Position numbers and translations under genes: made by a program. Below are positions 16,938 to 53,273 of a stretch of DNA of 64,000 nucleotides, in pieces. The first letter of the stretch is position 1. Each line of letters opens with the position of its first letter. The stretch covers positions 310,001 through 374,000 of the forward strand of contig NC_022998.1 of the NCBI RefSeq assembly GCF_000500935.1. The letters run 5' to 3'. Origin of the DNA: Spiroplasma apis B31 (GTDB lineage Bacteria; Bacillota_I; Bacilli_A; Mycoplasmatales; Mycoplasmataceae). A model generated the notes under the pieces. The model saw only the letters and a program-made list of their open reading frames with translations, ran no database searches and was not told where the DNA came from.

Positions 16938-17157
16938 ATGTGTACCTCTTTTTCGTTTTAATATCGTTCTAACTAAATGTTAATGTTTTAATTTTGAAAG
17001 TATTTACCATATTAAACGTTAATTTAGCTAGTTATCTAGTAAAAGATAGTTATTCTTTAATTTTAAAACAATAATACAAATATAACAATATAAATCTTAC
17101 TCATTAAAATAGAAAATTTGTAATAAAATAATAGTTGATTAAGTATCGAGGTATGAA

Positions 17158-18657
17158 ATGAAATATTGAGACATTACAGTTTTAACACCAATCATCATTA
17201 GCATTTGCTTTACAATTGTAATACTTATGTTACGAAAAGAGAAGTTATCAAAAAATGCTTTACTTTTTTGCTTGGAAGTGGCAATATTTTGATTATGTTC
17301 AAGTTTATTAGGCTACGAGTTAGTGTACCTTAAAGACTCATTGGCAAGAAGTTTAGAAAACAGAACATATCTAATAATTTTGTTGATAATATCTTTATTA
17401 TTTATCATAATACTTAAACCATTTGCTACATTCATTACAGGTATAATAAAAAGTAGAAAATTATGAATGTATTTATCTTATGCTAGTGTTATCTTATTAA
17501 CACTTCTGATGAACTTTCTAAAAGTTAGCAATATATACGTCTTCATTCTATATTCAATTTTATATGCTTTTATTCTTTCTACATCCACAATACATTACTT
17601 GTTTTTAAATGAACAATATTTTTATCGTATAAACACACTACCGGTTACTTGAGTCATTTATACAATTATTGGTTTTTCTGGTTTGTTAGGTACATTTATA
17701 GGGCAACTTCAAACAATAGTGTTATCTTCTGAAAATTTTACTTATACCAATTTATTTGTTCTACTTTTTATACCTATATGTTTATATTTAAATTTTACGC
17801 AAAAGGAGAATAAAAATTTAGCTAGCTCTTTTGATGAAAGTATTCGATCACAATTACCCAGAAAGAATAATTGAAATTTTTTCACTATTTATATAATTAC
17901 ATTTTTAGTTTCTTGTGCAGGTACTTTAAGTATGTCCTTAACAACAAAAATGTTTATTGCCTTCCAAGGCATTTATAATGGTTACTCAAATGACCTTGTA
18001 GAAACACTATTAAGATTATATGACTTCAATTTCATTATTCCTTCAGTGCTGATTTCTTATCTTATCTTCAAATTTGCAACTCCACATTTCAATCAGAAGT
18101 ATCTATTATTTACAAGTTTTTTTACATTATTCTTATTGTACGTAGTGTTAGCCTTCAATAAAAATCCTTTCACATTTATGATTTTAAATATCCTAATAGG
18201 GGTATGCTACACACAAATAATTTACTCTTTATTTAGCTTTTGTATGTTTTGGAATTATCGTGCACCAAAAAACCCTGTAACAGGCTTTTTTGGATCGGCT
18301 TTATTTGGTGGTATGTTTTTGAATCAAGTTATTGAAGAAACCTTATTAAATTCTAAGGTAGGTGTGTTTAAGTATTTTAAATCAGTAGATGAAATTTTAA
18401 AAACCAAGCAACTATTAACAAACGATAGTATAATCTACGAGAGTTTTATTGATTCTATCACTGTTATTATGACTCTCTCTTCGCTGTTAGTTCTGCTTGC
18501 TATGTTTATATTCTATTTTACTCATAAGTATATTTTTGCAGACTACATTAACCCAAGGTTAGCAGTGCAAAATTTAAAAATAATTCTTAAAAAAAGAGTT
18601 ATTGAAAAAACCAAAACTCAAATAAAAGTCGATGAGTTAGATAATAATGAAATGTAG
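17158..18657 (+). CDS. Predicted MFS-type multi-pass membrane protein, 499 aa
   Basis: GAGG at 17149-17152 precedes ATG 17158 (an out-of-frame ATG lies at 17153). UGA(Trp) occurs about six times. Around twelve hydrophobic segments spread over the whole length with a charged central loop near residue 235 (FDESIRSQLPRKNN), the two-times-six layout of major facilitator transporters. There is no clear MFS signature loop (GxxxDRxGRR), so the family call is by topology only. The aldose epimerase gene follows at 8 bases, which hints at, but does not prove, a sugar-related substrate. Confidence 0.65.
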
Positions 18658-18665
18658 GTTTAAAT

Positions 18666-19514
18666 ATGTATACAATAAAGAATGAATACTTAGATATTAC
18701 TTTTAAAGCCGATAGTTGCAATTTTGAAATAACTAGTTTGAAGTTCAAAGATAATGAGGTTTGCTATCAACAGAATTCGTCTTGAAAAAAAACATGACCC
18801 TTGCTATTTCCAAATTGTGGAGCTATTAACGGTTATATTAAATATAATGGCGTTAAATATCCTTTACCAAGACACGGTTTTATGAAAAATATAAATAATT
18901 GGACAATAAAAAGCATTTATAACGACTGCGCAGTATTATCGTTTTCATCTAATTGTCAATTCTCAAAAATTTATCCTTTTGAGTTTGAACTAGATTTAAT
19001 TTTGAAAGTCGCTAAAAATGTTTTTTCCATTGATTTCGTTGTAAAAAATGTTGAGGATGTTGATATGTATTATTCATTCGGACATCATCCAGCATTTAAA
19101 GTTGATGATTCCTCAAAAATAGTTTTAGAATCAGAAGAAACCTTCTTTGATTCATTCACTCCAGAAGGACTTTACTTAGAAGATGAACAAAATAAAAAAA
19201 AGTGAAAGGAAATTATTATCAAGGATGTCGATTTTTCTGAATCAAAGTCTTATTTTTGTGACACCCTAAGATCAAGTTATTTACTATATAAAAATGATTC
19301 ATTTGAATTTAAACTACCCCTGAATGATTATTCAACATTGGGTCTTTGAAGAGATAATAATGATAGTGGATTTATTTGTATAGAACCGTGGTGTGGTATG
19401 CCTGACAAGAGTGGAAATAGTGATCATGATTTAAAAAATAAGTACAAGATCTTAAAATTAAATCCTAAAGAGTCAAAAAAAATATCATTTGAAATGATAT
19501 TCAATACTAATTAG
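18666..19514 (+). CDS. Aldose 1-epimerase family protein
   Basis: Family role: interconverts alpha and beta anomers of sugars or sugar phosphates before uptake into glycolysis. Matching features are NCGAINGYIKYNG, RHGFMKNINNW (the RHG catalytic-pocket motif) and SFGHHPAF with the second conserved His. The later Glu region is ICIEPWCGMPD, where Glu is the likely general base. This pattern fits the galM/YeaD-like LacX subgroup. UGA(Trp) at about 18783, 18795, 19203 and 19347; 282 residues, normal for the subgroup. Its stop overlaps the end of ispG on the other strand. Confidence 0.88.
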
Positions 19515-20599
19515 TCCATACTATTCTGGTTTTTGCTTTTTCATTCTTCATAATAATCCAATATTAACAATTTTAATTCGGGAACAAGTTTTTCTTGGGA
19601 AACGGTTTTAAATATTTTTCCTTTTTTAAATATGATTCCTCCGTTTTTCCCTCCAGCTATTCCAATATCTGCGTGCGAAGCCTCACCTGGACCATTAACA
19701 ACGCATCCTAAAATAGCAATTTTTAATGGAAAATGTAAATTTTCAACAAATGATTCTATCTCCGCTACTACTTCTCGTAACTGAAATTCTAATCTTCCAC
19801 AAGTTGGACAAGCTATAACTTCAACCATATTATCAAATAAACCAATAGAATTCAGCAATCTTTTTGCTACTTTTATTTCCATAACAGGGTCTTCGCTTAA
19901 ACTAATTCTAATGGTATTTCCAATACCTCTGAATAATAAGTAACCGATTCCAAAACTAGATTTAATAGCCCCATTCAACAGACTGCCTGCTTCTGTAATT
20001 CCTATATGGACTGGATAATTTCATATTTCTGAAGCAAGACTGTATGCTTCAATTGCCATTAATGGATCTGTAGCTTTTAAAGAATAAATTATGTCATAAA
20101 ATTCATACTTTTCTAAAATCTCTATATGTTCTCTAAGTGCCTCAACCATGCATTTGGGAGTTCATCCGTATTTTTCAACTAATTTCTTTGGTAAACTTCC
20201 TGAGTTTACTCCAATCCTAATAGGTATGTTCTTTTCTTTACATTTTTGTACGACTGCAATTGTGTTTTCCTCGATACCAATATTTCCAGGGTTAATTCTA
20301 ATTTTTGCACATCCAGAATCAGCAGCTATCAATGCAAACTTATAATTAAAATGAATATCTGCAACTATTGGTATTGGTGATTTTTCGACTATTTCTTGAA
20401 GTGCATTTGCATCATCAATCCCAAGCACAGCAACTCTAGCAATTTGACAACCTTCTTTGTATAAGTTATTTATTTCTTCAAGCGTTGCATCCACATCGTG
20501 AGTTTTTGAGGTAGTCATTGATTGAATTACAACTTTATTATTACCACCAATTTGAATTTTCCCAACATAGACGGGCCTGGTTTCAGTTCTTTTATACAT
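19511..20599 (-). CDS. ispG: 4-hydroxy-3-methylbut-2-en-1-yl diphosphate synthase (IspG/GcpE)
   Basis: Sixth step of the MEP isoprenoid pathway; a [4Fe-4S] enzyme that takes electrons from ferredoxin or flavodoxin. TIM-barrel motifs include [17 protein letters not shown] and [11 protein letters not shown], with NPGNIG following. The Fe-S domain has CPTC (Cys264 and Cys267) and CVVNGPGE (Cys299), the three cluster ligands plus the conserved Glu. ATG at 20599, preceded on the minus strand by GGGGGTTAAT. Two or more UGA(Trp). The true stop is TAA at 19513-19511, past a UGA at 19541, giving 362 residues. Its presence shows this cell makes its own isoprenoids by the MEP route. Confidence 0.96.
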
Positions 20600-20787
20600 T
20601 ATTAACCCCCTACAAATTATATTTTAGTTTTATCATTATCTTTAATTGCAATCTTGCTTTTAAAGTTTCATATTAATTATACACATATTAATTAAATACA
20701 AATTTTAGTTATTTTAATTTATATAGTTCAAAAAACCTTAACTACAAGGATTTTTTAGTATAATTAAAGTTATAGGAGTTGAAATAA

Positions 20788-21648
20788 GTGGCAGAAAGAA
20801 TTACATTGCGGGACATAGTTGCAATTAATGATGCGCTAACTCATAAAAGCTATGAATCTCGTAATGAGTTTTTGACTTATGTTGATGTAATAGGTGAATA
20901 TTTAGATGAAACATTTTTCAAACAAGATGCCATAATTGAGAGACTAGTACATTATTGTGAAAAGAGTGCACGTTATTTAAATATACAAATCACTAAAAAC
21001 GAAAATATAAAATTAACCATAAAACATATTGCGGACTACATAAAAATTTGTAAAAAAGCATTAGAAAAAGCATTATATAGTGATCGAGATATATTCGATT
21101 TCAAAATCTTTGTTGAAATTAAAAGTATTGTTCGCTACTTCCTAGAAAAAACCTATGAATACAGCTCATTGTCTGATTATAAGACTTTGTTTGGCATAAA
21201 TACAGTTGAGTTTCACCAACAAAACGAGACATTCAAATATTTGTATACTGTTTTTGATAAATTTACATATATTGCTAGGCACCTAAATGATAAATATTAC
21301 AAAAATATAAAAAGTGATTATAATGAAAATGGTTTGAAATTTTTTGTAGATTTCCCAAAAGATATCGGATTTCTAACTAATAGTTTAATCGATCATGAAA
21401 AATTAACTATTTGTATCGAAACAATAACTATATCAAAAGCTTGACATTATATTAGAAGGTTAAGAAATGTATTGGAACATGATTTCGCAGACCCTAGTTT
21501 TAAGTACAATATTTCTTTTTCGATAGACTTACTATTTATAATTGTCGGTAGAATAATGATAGCGCTGAATAAATACTTAAAGCCCGAAAGACAACTAATT
21601 GAGACTTTGGAAAAACTTAAAGAAAAAGGCGAAACAGTTAAGGAATAA
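20788..21648 (+). CDS. Hypothetical helical protein with an R-x4-H (HEPN-like) motif, 286 aa
   Basis: The only suitably placed start after TAGGAGTTG is GTG 20788; a TATAAT-like element lies about 25 bases upstream. The product is soluble and almost wholly helix-prone. Near the C-terminus (Arg226 to His231) it reads RRLRNVLEHDF, the R-x4-H arrangement of HEPN ribonuclease or nucleotidyl-binding domains, followed by a long hydrophobic helix. UGA(Trp) at 21442. It starts the run that continues with scpA (2 bases later), scpB and rluB, so it is probably co-expressed with the condensin regulators. Family not otherwise recognised; the HEPN assignment is tentative. Confidence 0.75.
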
Positions 21649-21650
21649 AT

Positions 21651-22403
21651 ATGGAACGATGACAATCTTTAAATTTAAATAATTTCAACGGACCCTTAGA
21701 TCTATTGCTTCATATGATCAAGGAAAAACAATTGAATATTATGGATATCAATTTATTGGAATTATCAAATCAATATATAAAATATATTCAAAAGTGTGAA
21801 GAGCTAGATATTGAAGTTGCAAGCGAATACCTTGTGATGGCTGCATATCTTATTGAACTGAAGTCTAAATTATTAATCCCAAAGGAAGTTGTTGAGGTTG
21901 ATTCAGATTATGAAGAAAATCAAAGACAAGAATTATTATCACGCTTAATGGAATATCATAAGATCAAGGAAGTAACAAGCTTTTTCAAAGAACAACAAGA
22001 GGATTCTTTAAAGGTATATAGTAAACCAAAATCTGTTTTCAAGATAACTAAAATTGATGATGATAATTTACCATTAGCGCCGAATAATATTGATATCGAT
22101 AAGTTTGCAAAAATATTTTTAAAAGCTATTGAAAAAAAACAATCAACTGTAATGGAAACTAACACATTGACAAACGTAGATGTATCACCAGAAGAAATTG
22201 CTGTTGAAATAAGAAATTTTTTAGAAAAAAATAGAATAAAAAAAATAAAACTGAGTGATTTGATAGAAGAAAAACATTTCACTTTAAGAATGCTAGTTGC
22301 TACATTTCTAGCTGTTTTAGATTTAGCGTCTAAAAAAATTATTTATATTTATCAAGAAGTTGATGATGTAATAATTGATTATTTAGTTAGTGAAAGGGAA
22401 TAA
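21651..22403 (+). CDS. scpA: Segregation and condensation protein A
   Basis: Kleisin subunit that bridges SMC heads with ScpB for chromosome compaction and segregation. ATG 21651 is 2 bases after the preceding stop; AAGGAATAA in that gene end is the ribosome site. The diagnostic FNGPLDLLLHMIKEKQLNIMDI sequence is at residues 12-33. The C-terminal winged-helix region binds SMC (LVATFLAVLDLASKKIIYIYQ). Residue 4 is Trp by UGA. 250 residues, normal. The start of scpB lies 5 bases further on. Confidence 0.96.
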
Positions 22404-22408
22404 TACCT

Positions 22409-22966
22409 ATGGAGTTTAATAAAAAATTAGCAATTACAGAGGGGCTTCTTTTTGTTAATGGAGATGATGGTGTCTCAATAGATGATTTGAAGTTTATTTT
22501 AAACACAGAAGAAGACACTATAATCGAAAAAATACTTGACTCTTTAAAAGATAAATATAGAGGTGACGAATCCAGTGGTTTAGATATTCAAAAGTTTGCA
22601 AGAAATAAATTCAGGATGATAACCAAAAAAGAAAATGCCGAGCATTATGCTAAGTTATCTAATATTAAAACAGAAGCGAAGTTATCAACTGCAAGCATCG
22701 AAACTTTGTCTATTATTGCCTACAAAGGCCCAATATCAAAAGCTAAAGTCGAGGACATTAGAGGCGTTAATTGCGAGACAATATTTTATAAATTAAAGTT
22801 AAGAAACTTAATTGAAGAAGCGGGTAAATCATCAGACTTAGGGAAACCAATGTTGTATAAAGTTACCGATGATTTCTTAAAGTACTTTAATTTAAATAGC
22901 CTTGATGATTTACCAAAGTTAAAAGAAACAATAGAAGAAGAAAAAGATATTTTCAAAAGAGATTAG
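22409..22966 (+). CDS. scpB: Segregation and condensation protein B
   Basis: Dimeric winged-helix partner of ScpA in the SMC complex. GGGAATAATACCT precedes ATG 22409. Family blocks present: ITEGLLFVNGDDGVS, ALETL-like STASIETLSIIAYKGPISKAKVEDIRGVN, and RNLIEEAGKSSDLGKPMLYKVTDDFLKYF. 185 residues, no UGA. Adjacent rluB follows the common Firmicute/Mollicute order scpA-scpB-rluB. Confidence 0.97.
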   Translation: MEFNKKLAITEGLLFVNGDDGVSIDDLKFILNTEEDTIIEKILDSLKDKYRGDESSGLDIQKFARNKFRMITKKENAEHYAKLSNIKTEAKLSTASIETLSIIAYKGPISKAKVEDIRGVNCETIFYKLKLRNLIEEAGKSSDLGKPMLYKVTDDFLKYFNLNSLDDLPKLKETIEEEKDIFKRD

Positions 22967-22970
22967 TTAT

Positions 22971-23720
22971 ATGGAACGTTTACAAAAAATTATAGCAACA
23001 AGAGGTTATTGTTCAAGAAGACAAGCCGAAACTTTAATCACAAGCGGTAAAGTTAAAGTTAATGGGATCGTAGTTACAGAACTTGGTTCGAAATTTAATT
23101 GTGATGTAGAGATTAAAATTAATAATAAAAAACTAGAAATTGTTAAAGAAAAAGTTTATTATTTATTTAATAAACCAAGATTGGTTGTTACTACTATGTA
23201 TGACCCTAAAGAGAGAAAAACTGTTGCTGACTTTTTTAAAGATAGCAAAATTAGGGTATATCCAGTAGGTAGGTTGGATTATGATGTTAGTGGTGCATTA
23301 ATAATGACAAACGATGGAGAATTTGCTAACTTTGTTATGCACCCAAAGTATGAATTTAGAAAAACATATCAAGCGCTTTGTGATAGTAAAGTAACTAAAC
23401 AACAAATCAAAAACTTATTAAACGGTGTTATCATTGATGAAGATTATAAAACAAAAGCAATACATGCTGCATTACTGAAATATGATGATCAATATAATGA
23501 GTCAATAGTTGAAATAACTATAGCCGAAGGTAGAAAACATCATATTAAAAAAATGTTAATAGCTGCTGATATAAATTTGAAAAAGTTAAAAAGAACGCAA
23601 ATAGAGTTTTTAACAATCAATGATATTGAAGTTGGTAAGTTTAGAAGTTTAAAACCACACGAAATTAAACAATTCTACGGTATTTATAATTCAATATCTA
23701 AAAAGAATAATAAGGAGTAA
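22971..23720 (+). CDS. rluB: Ribosomal large-subunit pseudouridine synthase, RsuA/RluB family
   Basis: Isomerises a uridine in 23S rRNA helix 89-93 region (by homology U2605). N-terminal S4 RNA-binding domain: LQKIIATRGYCSRRQAETLI. Catalytic domain motif YPVGRLDYDVSGALIMTNDG contains the active-site Asp. Then FRKTYQAL and EGRKHHIKKML are typical of the family. ATG 22971, 249 residues, no UGA. Tight spacing to scpB (4 bases) and to the nucleoside kinase gene (3 bases) indicates one operon. Confidence 0.93.
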   Translation: MERLQKIIATRGYCSRRQAETLITSGKVKVNGIVVTELGSKFNCDVEIKINNKKLEIVKEKVYYLFNKPRLVVTTMYDPKERKTVADFFKDSKIRVYPVGRLDYDVSGALIMTNDGEFANFVMHPKYEFRKTYQALCDSKVTKQQIKNLLNGVIIDEDYKTKAIHAALLKYDDQYNESIVEITIAEGRKHHIKKMLIAADINLKKLKRTQIEFLTINDIEVGKFRSLKPHEIKQFYGIYNSISKKNNKE

Positions 23721-23723
23721 TTT

Positions 23724-24341
23724 ATGAGAATAGCATTATTTGGAACTGTAGGAGCTGGCAAATCAACAATTTCTGAGTTAATTTCAAAGCAACTTGGTTA
23801 TGAAATATTTCCTGAACCAATTGATAATAACCCTTATTTTGATGATTATTACAAAGACATGAAAGCAAATGTTTTTAAAATGCAAATCTATATGTTAACA
23901 GCAAGAAGTCGACAATTATTAGAAGCAAAATCATTAAAAAATGTAATTTTTGATAGAACAATTCTTGAAGATCCAATTTTTGTTACAGTTAATCATGATT
24001 TAAAAACCATGAACGATATTGATTACAAAACTTACACCGATTTTTACGAACAAGTTATAATACCAAGTCTTGGATATAAGTCAGAGTTTGATTTAGTTAT
24101 TTATTTGAAGTTATCAACAGATAAGGCTATCGAAAGAATTAAAGATAGAGGAAGAATTCAAGAACTAGAAACGCCTTATGAGTATTGGGAGTTACTAAAT
24201 AAAAGGTACGATGACTTTTTCGAAAGAAGAAAACATATGTTCAATTTCTTAGTTGTCGATGCTGAAAGTGACGATTTAGAAGAAAAAATGGAAATTATTA
24301 TGAATAAAATATACGAAATTGAACCCAATTTGGTAAAATAA
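23724..24341 (+). CDS. Deoxynucleoside kinase (deoxyadenosine/deoxyguanosine kinase family)
   Basis: Salvage enzyme that phosphorylates deoxynucleosides at the 5' position. P-loop GTVGAGKST at residues 7-15, the substrate-binding EPIDNNPYFDDYY, DRT near residue 76 with ILEDPIFV after it, and the LID region RIKDRGRIQE. AAGGAG before ATG 23724; 205 residues. Substrate range cannot be read from sequence; Mollicute members act on dAdo, dGuo or dCyd. Essential for a cell that imports nucleosides. Confidence 0.9.
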   Translation: MRIALFGTVGAGKSTISELISKQLGYEIFPEPIDNNPYFDDYYKDMKANVFKMQIYMLTARSRQLLEAKSLKNVIFDRTILEDPIFVTVNHDLKTMNDIDYKTYTDFYEQVIIPSLGYKSEFDLVIYLKLSTDKAIERIKDRGRIQELETPYEYWELLNKRYDDFFERRKHMFNFLVVDAESDDLEEKMEIIMNKIYEIEPNLVK

Positions 24342-24371
24342 ATTAGTTTAAATTATGTGAAAGGAATATTT

Positions 24372-25088
24372 ATGGGAAGAGCTCACGAAGTAAGAAAACA
24401 AAGTATGGAAAAAACAGCAGCTATGAAATCTGCTATTTATGGAAGGGCTTCTAAAGAAATTTATATGGCTGCAAAAAATGGTAGCTCTGATCCTGAGGCA
24501 AACTTGGCATTAAGAAGTGCAATTGATAAAGCAAAATCAAAACAAGTTCCTACAGATGTAATTAATAGGGCTATAAAAAAAGCAGAGGGTGGCGAAGCTG
24601 AAAATTACGTTTCTAATCGTTATGAAGGGTATGGACCCGGAAATTCAATGATAATTGTTGACTCTTTAACTAGTAATGTTAATAGAGCAATAGCAGAAAT
24701 AAGGGATGCATTTAATAAAAATGGGGGAAAGATTGCCAACTCAGGTTCGGTTTCTCATTCTTTCCAACCTACTAGTTTGTTTGCGTTTGAAGAAAAGTCC
24801 GTTGAAGAAGTTCTAGAATTATTGATGGACACAGATGCAGAAGTTAATGATGTTATTGAAGAAGATGGATTAACAATGGTATATGCATCATTTCAATCTT
24901 TTAATGCAGTTAAAACAGCTTTAGACAAAGCGGGTTTAAAGAATTATAAATTGGCAGAAACTACTATGTTGGCTGATGATTTCATTAAAATTAATGATGA
25001 AGAAACAAAATTACAGTTTAATAAGCTTATAAATAAATTAAATGAACTTGAAGATGTACAAGAAGTTTATCACAACGTTGAAATTTAA
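24372..25088 (+). CDS. YebC/PmpR family DNA-binding regulatory protein
   Basis: ATG 24372 (AAAGGA 8-13 bases upstream) is preferred to in-frame GTG 24357. The 238-residue product begins MGRAHEVRKQSMEKTAAMKS, the YeeN-type opening. NRAIKKAEGGEAENY is the family signature helix, and YEGYGPGNSMIIVDSLT and the GGKIANSGSVSHSF segment follow. YebC-family members bind DNA, and some were shown to act in translation of proline stretches. No UGA. It ends the scpA operon and is followed by a strong terminator. Confidence 0.92.
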   Translation: MGRAHEVRKQSMEKTAAMKSAIYGRASKEIYMAAKNGSSDPEANLALRSAIDKAKSKQVPTDVINRAIKKAEGGEAENYVSNRYEGYGPGNSMIIVDSLTSNVNRAIAEIRDAFNKNGGKIANSGSVSHSFQPTSLFAFEEKSVEEVLELLMDTDAEVNDVIEEDGLTMVYASFQSFNAVKTALDKAGLKNYKLAETTMLADDFIKINDEETKLQFNKLINKLNELEDVQEVYHNVEI

Positions 25089-25097
25089 GTAAATATA

Positions 25098-25130
25098 TTA
25101 TAAAAACCACCATTAAGGTGGTTTTTATAA
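25098..25130 (+). terminator. Intrinsic terminator after the scpA-yebC run
   Basis: 14-bp stem TTATAAAAACCACC/GGTGGTTTTTATAA (25098-25111 with 25117-25130), loop ATTAA. Confidence 0.93.
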
Positions 25131-25226
25131 TTAGTTAAGTTTATGAAATTTGTTTTCAATTTATCAGGTTAATCTAAAATTAAGAAACACTTATATATTG
25201 ATATACTATCTAAAAGGAGATAAGTA

Positions 25227-26867
25227 ATGAAAAAAGTTTTAATATTAATCAGCAGTAACTTTTTATTTTTAATCGGTACAGTCCAAACATTAAGTTGTAG
25301 TATTCAAATAAAAAACGATGATCAAAATTTAAAGGACCTTAGAACAATAAATACTAGTTTAGGAGAATTTGAAGGTTATGAGGAACTTCCTTCATTACCA
25401 TTATTAATTGCTAGAGTAAATAAGGTTAATACCGGCTTAGATTTGAATTCAAGTGATATATCGTTGGTTGAAGAAACTCTAACTGTTTTTAATGCTAGAA
25501 TAAAAGGTAATGGAAAAAATGTGATTGGAGAATGCTTGTTAACATTTAAATACATCCATAAAAAAGGGAACTTAACAGATTTAATAACTAAAACTAATTT
25601 AGGAAACATAAAAGATAATACAAATATGCCTAGTAATAGCATTTTATTAAATAAAATTAATGATATTAATAATACTAAGTTTACCTTTGATGATATTTCT
25701 ATATCAGAAGTGAATGAATCAAGTGCAAGGATAAGTGCAAACCCTCAGTCAACTAAGTATGAAGGAGAAGTTTCTATCAGTTATAATTACAAAAAAGTGG
25801 AAAGTATTGAAGTCAAGAATTTAATAAACAAGACTTATTTAGGTAAAATTTACTCACAAAAGAGTGTTTTTACAAGTGAAGAGATACTTGAAGCTGCATC
25901 ATTTCACAATGATAATTTTGATAAATCCATCTCAGATGCCTTAATAGTTACAAACATAACCTCAACATCAGCTATTATTAAATCAAATAGTAATTATTCT
26001 ACATTCCGAGGAGAAGTTTTGGTAAATTATGAAGGCAAAGAGAAGGTATCGTTAACAAACTCAATCAAAAATAAAGAGTTCGGTTTAATAAGAGGTGCCA
26101 AAAACGACAACGGGCAGGTCAAAATTGATGTTGACGCTTTTTTAAAACAACTTATGCTAGAAAATCCTCATTTTAACACTGAATATATACGAAATGGTAT
26201 AAGTGACGAACCTTATTATAGTCCAGATAAAAAGAAATATTTTTTGGTTTTAAGTGTGGCGAATAGTCATCCAATAATCCCATATAAACATAATACTGGA
26301 TGTAGTATATATTTTGAAATTGATAATGATAAAACTGTATTCAATAAAAAAGATTTGAAGGATGAAATCAAAATGGTAAACATCGGAGAAATCGATGGAT
26401 ATATTGATAGTTTTAATAGGGATGTTAATGTTGTTTTTGAGAAAATAAATGAATTGAATAATATATCTTTGGATTATCAATTTATGTACTATTTATTAAG
26501 TTGGGTCGGAAATAACAAAGTAAAAATCATAGCAAAAAATGATAATCCTACATATAAAGGTGAAGTTGAAATAACATACAATTATAACAAGTTAGATAAA
26601 TTAGGAAACCTTGAAGAAATCATAAAAGATAGAAATTTAGGTGAAATATTTACCTATCGTTCTTCAGATTACAAAGTTTATCGTCATACAATCAAAGTCT
26701 TGTTAAATGCAAAGTATCCTAAAGCTAACTTAATATTAGATTATGACATAAATATTGTTGATATTACAGATACTAACTTCAAAGTGGAAATCTTAGATAC
26801 TGGAAAATACTTTGGTTCAAGTTTCTTGATGAGCTATTATAAAATAAAAAAAGATACTTGGATTTAA
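25227..26867 (+). CDS. Repeat lipoprotein, 546 aa, six modules of about 80 residues
   Basis: AAAAGGAGAT precedes ATG 25227. The signal peptide ends in TLSC with lipid Cys24. The mature part is built from six related modules whose first hydrophobic-Gly pairs fall at residues 45, 125, 205, 285, 386 and 471. Modules start LG(E/N/K)I or similar and end with an (S/A)A-I-x-(S/A)N-x4-Y-x-G-E-V-x-I-x-Y strand pattern. No UGA codon in the frame; tgg is used for Trp. The same module type occurs in the 51339 lipoprotein. Probably an exposed beta-rich surface protein; partner unknown. Confidence 0.85.
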   Translation: MKKVLILISSNFLFLIGTVQTLSCSIQIKNDDQNLKDLRTINTSLGEFEGYEELPSLPLLIARVNKVNTGLDLNSSDISLVEETLTVFNARIKGNGKNVIGECLLTFKYIHKKGNLTDLITKTNLGNIKDNTNMPSNSILLNKINDINNTKFTFDDISISEVNESSARISANPQSTKYEGEVSISYNYKKVESIEVKNLINKTYLGKIYSQKSVFTSEEILEAASFHNDNFDKSISDALIVTNITSTSAIIKSNSNYSTFRGEVLVNYEGKEKVSLTNSIKNKEFGLIRGAKNDNGQVKIDVDAFLKQLMLENPHFNTEYIRNGISDEPYYSPDKKKYFLVLSVANSHPIIPYKHNTGCSIYFEIDNDKTVFNKKDLKDEIKMVNIGEIDGYIDSFNRDVNVVFEKINELNNISLDYQFMYYLLSWVGNNKVKIIAKNDNPTYKGEVEITYNYNKLDKLGNLEEIIKDRNLGEIFTYRSSDYKVYRHTIKVLLNAKYPKANLILDYDINIVDITDTNFKVEILDTGKYFGSSFLMSYYKIKKDTWI

Positions 26868-51281: not shown

Positions 51282-51338
51282 TTAATATCACAAACGGGTT
51301 TTAACCTAAACAAATTTACTGGGAGGTAGTTGAAAAAT

Positions 51339-52139
51339 ATGAAAAAACTATTAAGTATATTAGGGTCAATAACACTTATAGGAGCAGGTCCAGCTTCATT
51401 GGTTGCTTGTTCAAAAGAAAAAGCAACCCTTAAAGATTTATCATCAGTACTAACTAATACCAAATTAGGTGATTTAGCAAATAAAGAGGAAAAAACAATA
51501 AAGAATGCAATCAAAGAAAAAAATAAAAATATTATAATTGATGAGTTAGTTTTATCTTCAATAACAGAGAAAAGTGCAAAAGTTTCAGTTAAAAAAGAAT
51601 CAAAAGTATATAACCAAATTACTGCTGGTTCTGAAATAAACATCGAGTTCTCTGTCAAAGCAACCCTTAAAGATTTATCAACAGACTTAACTGTTACAAA
51701 ATTAGGCGAGTTGGCAAATAAAGATGAAAAAACAATCATAAAAGGGATAAAAGATAATAATAAAAATATCATAATTGATGAGTTAGTTTTATCTTCAATA
51801 ACAGAGAAAAGTGCAAAAGTTTCAGTTAAAAAAGAATCAAAAGTATATAACCAAATCGCTGCTGGTTCTGAAATAAACATCGAGTTCTCTGTCAAAGCAA
51901 TCCTTAAAGATTTATCAACAGACTTAACTGTTACCGATTTAGGAACTATTAAAAATAAAGAAAAAGAAACTATTATAGCTGCTATCAAAAATAAGAATAA
52001 AAATGTAGATATTGATGAAATAGAAGTTGGTTTCATAAAAGATAAAAGTGCTGAGATATTTGTAAAAGAAAATTCAAATGTGTATAAGGTATTTAAAAAC
52101 AAAGAAAGTATTGTAGTTAGTTTTAAAATAGGGAAGTAA
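51339..52139 (+). CDS. Repeat lipoprotein, 266 aa, three 79-residue modules (spiralin-like layout)
   Basis: TGGGAGGT 11 bases before ATG 51339 (an in-frame TTG at 51330 is too close). The signal peptide ends LVAC with lipid Cys24. The mature protein is three tandem modules starting (T/I)LKDLS; modules 1 and 2 are almost identical, module 3 diverged. Each has a helix with Lys/Asn/Glu and a strand set around SSITEKSAKVSV. The layout recalls spiralin, the abundant Spiroplasma surface lipoprotein, which also has internal repeats. No UGA, no Trp. Probable exposed protein able to vary by repeat recombination. Confidence 0.87.
   Translation: MKKLLSILGSITLIGAGPASLVACSKEKATLKDLSSVLTNTKLGDLANKEEKTIKNAIKEKNKNIIIDELVLSSITEKSAKVSVKKESKVYNQITAGSEINIEFSVKATLKDLSTDLTVTKLGELANKDEKTIIKGIKDNNKNIIIDELVLSSITEKSAKVSVKKESKVYNQIAAGSEINIEFSVKAILKDLSTDLTVTDLGTIKNKEKETIIAAIKNKNKNVDIDEIEVGFIKDKSAEIFVKENSNVYKVFKNKESIVVSFKIGK
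51423..52133 (+). repeat. Three tandem in-frame 237-bp repeats
   Basis: Units begin at 51423, 51660 and 51897 (GCAACCCTTAAAG twice, GCAATCCTTAAAG once). Units 1 and 2 share long identical stretches of more than 80 bases; unit 3 differs widely after its first 50 bases. Period is exactly 79 codons. Confidence 0.93.
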
Positions 52140-52250: not shown

Positions 52251-53159
52251 TTACTTTTTAATTGAACCTATTCTTTTCACATCCGAAGCCTCTTGTTCTT
52301 TAATAGCTTGTAGTCTTCGATTTGCTTCCTCAATAGTTCTTCTAGTTCTATCAAGTTCTTTTTTTCGTTTTTCTTCTGCACTTATCTTAGATCAAACTCC
52401 AGCTCTCATAGAATCACTCATTAGTAATACTAATAATACTGAAATATTGAATAAATCATCAACAACCTTAGCAATGTGTTTCTTTTGCTTTTCGGTTAAA
52501 CTATCAGATTTATATTTATCCAATATTGCAACTTGGCTATAAAAATCATCAGCAAATTTATTTCCAAATTTTTGGTACATTATAGGCTTACCAACCTCAA
52601 TAAATAATGCAATATTTTTAAATAAAGCTAACTTTAGTTCAATTTCGTGTTCTGTAGCCGATCTAAATTGGTGAATTATATTGTTAATCCTATCATCTTG
52701 ATACTCTTCTATTACTTTCTCTGAAATGATTCTTTCTTTTTGACTTACTAATTTAAAAACCACTTTATTATTTTCAATTTCTGTTTCAATAAATTTGTAA
52801 TTCATTGCATTTACATATTTTTGTATACGTAGTGGTAATATGTACATATCATAAGCAATATACTCTGAGTATCTTCATTTTCTAGAAACGATTTGCAAAA
52901 CTATGTTATATACCATTTCTAATATTGTTAAATTTAGTGTTCTTTCATTTAACTTAAACTCTAGTTTATTTAATCTCAATAATTGATAAAATTCGTAACC
53001 GTAATATTCTAATGAGATCATATTAAAATATGTTTGTATAGTTGAATTGTTCAAAATTGCTGAGTATGAAAATTGAATATCAGGAACTAATGCATCTATT
53101 ATATTTTCAAATTGAGGTCTTAGATCCAATACAGATTGAAAGTGTTTTCTTTCAGACAT
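52251..53159 (-). CDS. Hypothetical helical protein with an R-x4-H (HEPN-like) motif, 302 aa
   Basis: Minus strand; GGAGG eight bases before ATG at 53159. UGA(Trp) at two sites; stop TAA at 52253-52251. Mostly helix-prone. FRSATEHEIE at residues 165-174 gives Arg166-x4-His171, matching the motif and flanking pattern of the 20788 protein, and is followed by a long hydrophobic helix. Residues 256-302 form a basic coiled coil. Two hydrophobic patches (about residues 80-92 and 236-250) are too short or polar for sure membrane helices. Family not recognised; HEPN-type RNA-binding or nuclease fold is a guess. Confidence 0.75.
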
Positions 53160-53273
53160 ATAAATTTCCTCCAAAATCTAATTTAATATATTTTACCATA
53201 AACTTGTTTTATTTTAGTCGTTAGTTACGAAATGTTATATGATTAGTGTATATTTAAAATCTTGGAGAAATGT

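What the first reader, a model, noticed from the sequence alone, without database searches (positions are those of the whole stretch)
20788..21648. R-x4-H (HEPN-like) helical protein at the head of the scpA-scpB operon
The 286-residue product has RNVLEH (Arg226-His231) followed by a hydrophobic helix, the layout of HEPN domains, which in other systems are RNases or nucleotide-binding helical pairs. It overlaps the condensin regulators in a tight operon, where I know of no described HEPN partner. The motif itself is short and could occur by chance; the match with the unlinked 52251-53159 protein makes chance less likely.
Basis: partly seen in the sequence, partly recalled or inferred. Interest (0 to 1): 0.6.

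Follow-up and report, generated by a model that had tools for sequence, protein, structure and literature searches.

The report
HEPN RNase-like gene heading condensin operon
A previously unclassified protein, almost certainly carrying an RNA-cutting-type HEPN domain, is encoded just upstream of the two genes for chromosome-folding (condensin) subunits in most genera of a family of wall-less bacteria, and it has been inherited together with them.

Summary
The ORF (20788-21648, table 4, GTG start) and the R226-N227-x3-H231 motif are real. One Rx4H in such a protein is weak evidence (0.36 expected by chance). But R, N and H are invariant in every homologue aligned, down to about 20% identity, and are three of only six invariant columns in the most divergent set. 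An AlphaFold model (pLDDT 78, pTM 0.83) puts the motif at the end of a helix, with invariant D157-K158 in helix 2, the published HEPN layout. Solved HEPN toxins are prominent among the fold matches of its C-terminal domain. Its profile matches HepT better than two accepted HEPN families match each other. No Pfam, NCBIfam, PADLOC or PHROGs model recognises it, so the HEPN call stands as a new, unnamed HEPN family. The gene lies within about 60 nt of scpA in all 11 genera that carry it there, and its divergence tracks ScpA (Mantel r 0.88). The genome has no MNT antitoxin. It does not overlap scpA (2-nt gap). Best reading: a vertically inherited HEPN endoRNase; a functional link to condensin is unproven.

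The parts
20788..21648 (+). HEPN-domain protein, 286 aa (table 4, GTG start)
   Evidence: orthologues; model
20788..21081 (+). N-terminal helical region (residues 1-98), function unknown
21103..21159 (+). HEPN helix 1 (residues 106-124), with E110 invariant in the 28-row alignment
21202..21300 (+). HEPN helix 2 (residues 139-171), with invariant D157-K158
21301..21435 (+). [quoted passage not shown] two extra helices, partly low confidence)
21436..21480 (+). HEPN helix 3 (residues 217-231), ending in R226-N227-x3-H231
21463..21480 (+). R-N-x3-H motif (residues 226-231), predicted RNase active site; F233 follows, where HepT toxins have Tyr
21514..21576 (+). HEPN helix 4 (residues 243-263), with R255 invariant in the 28-row alignment
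21651..22403 (+). scpA (kleisin), starts 2 nt after the HEPN stop
   Evidence: Pfam SMC_ScpA 2.9e-32
22409..22966 (+). scpB
   Evidence: Pfam SMC_ScpB 2.3e-47
22971..23720 (+). rluB-type pseudouridine synthase
   Evidence: S4 + PseudoU_synth_2
23724..24341 (+). deoxynucleoside kinase
   Evidence: dNK 6.4e-41
24357..25088 (+). yebC

Best explanation
The gene encodes a HEPN-domain protein of an unnamed family: an N-terminal helical region followed by a C-terminal HEPN bundle. The most likely mechanism is that of canonical HEPN enzymes. The protein would dimerise and cut RNA without a metal, using R226, N227 and H231 at the end of helix 3, helped by D157-K158 in helix 2, and leave 2',3'-cyclic phosphate ends. 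It is kept as a chromosomal housekeeping-type gene, co-transcribed and co-inherited with scpAB, not as a mobile toxin-antitoxin module. With no MNT antitoxin found in the genome, activity is probably restrained by the N-terminal region, by substrate choice or by an unidentified partner. Shown: the ORF, the invariant residues, synteny, co-divergence, predicted fold, profile similarity to HepT. Inferred: dimer, RNase activity, co-transcription, regulation. Unknown: substrate. Confidence is about 0.9 for a HEPN domain and 0.6 for the whole statement.
For: R226, N227 and H231 are invariant in 28 aligned orthologues and in a 16-row set with three divergent relatives, where only D157, K158, S216, R226, N227 and H231 are invariant. 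The model has helices 106-124, 139-171, an insert, 217-231 and 243-263, with the motif closing helix 217-231. That is the HEPN layout given in PMC3710099, including N after R and an acidic residue in helix 2. VIA-align of the full model: HEPN toxin 8xdj Z 6.3 over 123 of 130 residues, also 8xeh, 6m6u, 7ae6. Domain-only model: 1jog, 8yuf, 6m6w, 8xdj, 7ae8, 8xeh, 8pe3 (Csm6'), 6m6u, 1wty, 7bxo, 5yep in the top 22. Range ends imply R226/H231 over R98/H103 of 8xdj, the residues named in PMC11586414. hhalign against HepT: P 0.0014, motif on motif, 0 of 399 column shuffles and 0 of 392 block shuffles reach it; two accepted HEPN families, HepT and Abi_2, score only P 0.011 against each other. Synteny: next to scpA in all 11 genera with a copy at the locus. 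Mantel r 0.88 with ScpA. No PF01909 or PF01934 match in the genome.
Against: No HMM library names it. Foldseek E-values are not significant, VIA Z is in the range of ordinary helical bundles, and two designed bundles score higher. The model rests on five sequences, and the domain-only model is worse (pLDDT 64). The profile match depends on the motif region (score 28.5 falls to 16.2 when masked). In Legionella HEPN, mutating the R and H of this motif barely changed RNase activity (PMC11586414), so the motif does not guarantee this chemistry. The gene is missing from at least three lineages of the family, so it is not universally required.
Confidence: 0.6

Rival explanations
1. A resident abortive-infection (Abi) RNase: dormant until phage infection, then cutting host or phage RNA. 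It has become fixed next to scpA and is otherwise unrelated to condensin.
For: Overall layout resembles Abi_2 (AbiD/AbiF): about 300 aa with RNxxxH near residues 190-250. A divergent relative in G026 lies beside a terminase large subunit; others lie near transposase fragments in G073 and G214. HEPN proteins are common in defence (PMC3710099).
Against: Vertical inheritance and fixed position over 11 genera, whereas defence genes are usually patchy. No PADLOC hit for the query. Profile similarity to Abi_2 is weak (P 0.037).
Confidence: 0.2
2. A condensin-coupled RNase: the HEPN protein binds ScpA/ScpB or SMC, and RNA cleavage acts at, or is controlled by, condensin on the nucleoid.
For: Tight, conserved gene order with scpA; co-divergence with ScpA (r 0.88) is stronger than that of ScpA with rluB (r 0.70).
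Against: Lineages with scpA but no HEPN at the locus exist (g4, g8, G021). Operon partners need not interact, and genome-reduced bacteria tend to keep gene order. No paper found ties HEPN to ScpAB.
Confidence: 0.15
3. A HEPN fold that no longer cuts RNA and acts as an RNA-binding or dimerising regulator.
For: Some HEPN domains are non-catalytic (PMC3710099).
Against: HEPN domains described as non-catalytic lack the motif (PMC3710099); here R, N and H are the best conserved residues.
Confidence: 0.12
4. Not HEPN: a helical protein with a coincidental R-x4-H.
For: Rx4H alone is expected 0.36 times in such a protein; no library hit; fold scores are in the helical-bundle background.
Against: Invariance of R, N, H; motif position on the helix; HEPN structures over-represented among fold matches; profile match to HepT above all shuffles.
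Confidence: 0.07

Closest known systems
HepT (PF01934/DUF86), toxin of the HepT/MntA type VII toxin-antitoxin system
   Same: HEPN bundle. The motif region matches in register: W-x2-I-x2-L-R-N-x-[IL]-x-H-[DE]-[YF]. Best profile match found (P 0.0014), and solved structures among the top fold matches.
   Different: No MNT gene found in the genome; Phe233 in place of the AMPylated Tyr; about 100 extra N-terminal residues and a longer insert; vertical, operon-bound gene; no Pfam hit.
Abi_2 (PF07751; AbiD/AbiF)
   Same: About 300 aa, N-terminal region then C-terminal HEPN with RNxxxH.
   Different: No HMM hit and weak profile similarity (P 0.037). Abi_2 is patchy in the genomes searched, this gene is vertical. 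Abi_2 mostly has A or S before the His, this family mostly E.
Cthe_2314-like HEPN (PF18730)
   Same: HEPN with Rx4-6H and no operon partner detected (PMC3710099).
   Different: No hit in any member scanned against Pfam; no PF18730 protein could be fetched for a profile comparison.
Csm6/Csx1 HEPN ribonucleases
   Same: The Csm6' HEPN region (8pe3 234-369) is among the domain-model matches.
   Different: No CARF domain recognised and no CRISPR genes in the neighbourhood.
SMC-ScpAB condensin operon
   Same: The HEPN gene is the first gene of this operon.
   Different: HEPN is not a described component of ScpAB.

Membership tests
[quoted passage not shown]
   AF2 model: helices 106-124, 139-171, insert 172-216, 217-231, 243-263
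[quoted passage not shown]
   R226/H231 invariant; helix 217-231 ends at H231
HEPN superfamily | polar residue, mostly N/D/H, right after the R | tested here: met
   N227 invariant
HEPN superfamily | conserved acidic residue in helix 2, often as Ex3[KR] | tested here: inconclusive
   D157-K158 invariant in helix 2, but not in the Ex3[KR] form; proximity to the motif not measured
HEPN superfamily | profile similarity to accepted HEPN families | tested here: met
   hhalign vs HepT P 0.0014, 0/399 and 0/392 shuffles reach it; HepT vs Abi_2 as yardstick P 0.011
HEPN superfamily | structural match to solved HEPN domains | tested here: inconclusive
   many HEPN chains near the top, Z 5.7-7.5, but within the helical-bundle background
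HEPN superfamily | RNase activity dependent on R and H | not testable with these tools
   needs purified protein
HepT/MntA type VII toxin-antitoxin | adjacent MNT nucleotidyltransferase antitoxin | tested here: not met
   no PF01909 match in the whole genome; neighbours are ispG and scpA
HepT/MntA type VII toxin-antitoxin | RX4HXY tyrosine that accepts AMP (PMC7641770) | tested here: not met
   F233, invariant in 28 sequences
HepT (PF01934) | match to the Pfam model | tested here: not met
   no hit in the protein or its orthologues, nor in the genome
Abi_2 (AbiD/AbiF) | match to PF07751 | tested here: not met
   no hit
Cthe_2314-like HEPN | match to PF18730 | tested here: not met
   no hit in 28 members; profile-profile comparison not possible, no PF18730 members found
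ScpAB condensin component | physical association with ScpA, ScpB or SMC | not testable with these tools
   only synteny and co-divergence known

The most novel reading that the evidence does not exclude
A HEPN ribonuclease that works with the SMC-ScpAB condensin of these bacteria, so that RNA cleavage is coupled to chromosome loading or segregation. No such partnership turned up in the literature searched.
Probability: 0.15. Interest if true: 0.85.

Novelty: new variant of a known kind. Interest (0 to 1): 0.58.

Why it matters
HEPN proteins are known mostly as toxins, abortive-infection and CRISPR ribonucleases. A HEPN that is inherited vertically at the head of the condensin operon in 11 genera of genome-reduced bacteria, with no antitoxin found in the genome examined, points to a housekeeping RNase, or to an RNA activity linked to chromosome handling. 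It also gives a concrete, testable assignment to a gene that no family library searched here recognises. By position, the orthologue in the minimal-cell lineage, if that lineage kept it, would be the gene just before scpA (MMSYN1_0327 in PMC4993169). That last step is an inference and was not checked here.

Tried and rejected
The 52251-53159 protein as a second HEPN: rejected (minus strand; no similarity; His not conserved). Pfam, NCBIfam, PADLOC, PHROGs and PDB-sequence searches: nothing credible; scattered hits to unrelated families (RnlB antitoxin 0.002, RasGEF 6.8e-5, GajA 2.3e-4, each in one or two members) were set aside. Foldseek against PDB and BFVD: no significant hit. Most full-model VIA rows are GPCRs, read as helical-bundle noise. 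Viral contig scans: no relatives. PF18730 family fetch: nothing found anywhere, not evidence of absence. PF18739 gave three loci, too few to use. Rfam over 17000-26000: nothing. Promoter scan: 38 sites against 28.7 expected, no use made of it. Literature: no paper found on the gene or on HEPN with ScpA or condensin. A first run of the shuffle test failed part way and was repeated.

Full report
Observation. The 286-codon ORF at 20788-21648 (+) is open under table 4, starts with GTG behind AGGAG, and contains one Rx4H, RNVLEH at 226-231. The next gene, scpA, starts two bases after the stop codon; there is no overlap. The run is HEPN-scpA-scpB-rluB-dNK-yebC, with ispG divergent upstream.

The 52251-53159 protein is on the minus strand, shows no BLASTP or profile similarity to the first protein, and the His of its RSATEH is private to this genome: its orthologues read otherwise at that position. 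That match is chance.

Conservation. Orthologues occur in all 20 genomes of the genus, and 11 of the 12 genera of the family have a match. Genus g4 has none. In genus g8 only two divergent copies were found, in G026 and G073, and the G026 copy is not at scpA. An order-wide search gave one clear distant relative outside the family (G214, E 1e-9) and one marginal hit. In 28 sequences 14 columns are invariant, among them D157, K158, S216, R226, N227, H231 and F233. After adding the divergent relatives from G026, G073 and G214, only D157, K158, S216, R226, N227 and H231 remain invariant. A motif that is the best conserved part of proteins otherwise about 20% identical is very unlikely to be chance.

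Fold. The C-terminal part has helices 106-124, 139-171, an insert with two short helices, 217-231 and 243-263. PMC3710099 describes HEPN as two helical hairpins with an insert between helices 2 and 3, Rx4-6H at the end of helix 3, a polar residue (mostly N, D or H) after the R, and often an acidic residue in helix 2. All but the exact form of the helix-2 motif are met. Foldseek gives no significant hit. VIA-align ranks HEPN toxins at Z 5.7-6.3 for the full model, covering 123 of 130 residues of 8xdj. For the isolated domain eleven HEPN entries stand in the top 22, Z 6.7-7.5. These Z values are within the helical-bundle background, two designed bundles score higher, and the domain-only model is weaker (pLDDT 64), so fold alone is not decisive. 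The range ends imply, if no gap follows, that R226/H231 lie on R98/H103 of 8xdj and R226 on R102 of 7ae6, and one residue off in 6m6u. R98 and H103 are the RX4HXY residues named in PMC11586414.

Profile evidence. An alignment of HepT proteins (PF01934, fetched) was compared with the family by hhalign. P is 0.0014 and the alignment places the two motifs on each other: W219-x2-I222-x2-L225-R226-N227-x-L229-x-H231-D232-F233 against the HepT pattern W-x2-I-x2-L-R-N-x-I-x-H-[DE]-Y. None of 399 column shuffles or 392 reversed-block shuffles reaches the score (28.5; best 27.4 and 20.7); masking the motif region drops it to 16.2. As a yardstick, two accepted HEPN families, HepT and Abi_2, score 22.3 (P 0.011) against each other. 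By this measure the family is at least as close to HepT as Abi_2 is.

Context. In every sampled genome that carries the gene at this locus it is directly upstream of scpA on the same strand, within about 60 nt or with a short overlap, while the upstream gene varies (ispG, galM, a 190-aa protein, others). Protein distances correlate with those of ScpA (Mantel r 0.88) and ScpB (0.84), better than ScpA with the next gene's product (0.70). Mean pairwise identity is 33% against 47% for ScpA, so it evolves faster but vertically. Lineages with scpA but without it at the locus exist (g4, g8, G021), so ScpAB can work without it. The divergent copy in G026 sits beside a terminase large subunit, and those in G073 and G214 lie near transposase fragments (these fragments were named by eye from their translations). 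Thus the wider family also seems to travel with mobile elements.

Not a known system. The genome has no PF01909 and no PF01934 match, and the residue two after the His is Phe, where HepT has the Tyr that MntA modifies (PMC7641770). It is therefore not a HepT/MntA pair. No Pfam, NCBIfam, PADLOC or PHROGs model recognises it. The main text of the HEPN survey PMC3710099 does not contain the words mollicute, Mycoplasma, Spiroplasma, condensin or SMC, and literature searches found no link of HEPN to ScpA.

Mechanism. By analogy with characterised HEPN RNases (RNase L, PrrC, RloC; PMC3710099), H231 would activate the 2'-OH, R226 would bind the phosphate or stabilise the intermediate, and N227 and D157 would assist, giving 2',3'-cyclic phosphate ends, probably in a dimer. 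This is inference. A caution: in Legionella HEPN the R and H of this motif were dispensable for activity (PMC11586414). Absence of a recognised antitoxin and vertical inheritance argue for a housekeeping or tightly controlled RNase more than for a free toxin. Defence and condensin-coupled roles stay open.

Verdict. The HEPN claim is supported as a new, unnamed HEPN family. The condensin partnership is a hypothesis resting on operon structure and co-divergence.

Noticed in passing
window 52251-53174 (-): Conserved protein of unknown function (P0002), in all 20 genomes of the genus and a few other genera, no Pfam or PHROGs hit; its N-terminal half (e.g. PDIQFSY, RKWRYSEYIAYDMYILPLRI) is highly conserved.
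   Followed up: partly
L117:2438-4955 (genome G026): A divergent HEPN relative directly next to a phage terminase large subunit, apparently in a prophage, with RN-x3-H kept.
   Followed up: partly
L116:1514-1987 (genome G214) and L118:2516-3286 (genome G073): Divergent stand-alone HEPN relatives near what look like transposase fragments; the one in G214 belongs to another family of the order and is short (157 aa).
   Followed up: partly
L102:3896-4492, L103:3902-4483, L104:4306-4875: An unnamed protein of about 190 aa lies between the membrane protein and the HEPN gene in Mesoplasma-type genomes, where other genera have galM or ispG.
   Followed up: no
window 51330-52139 (+): Probable lipoprotein with three similar internal repeats of about 70 aa (LKDLS...TxLG...NKxEKTI...).
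   Followed up: no
window 25097-25131: Symmetric 15-pair stem just after yebC, the only terminator-like site in 20560-25300; plausible end of the HEPN-scpAB operon.
   Followed up: no
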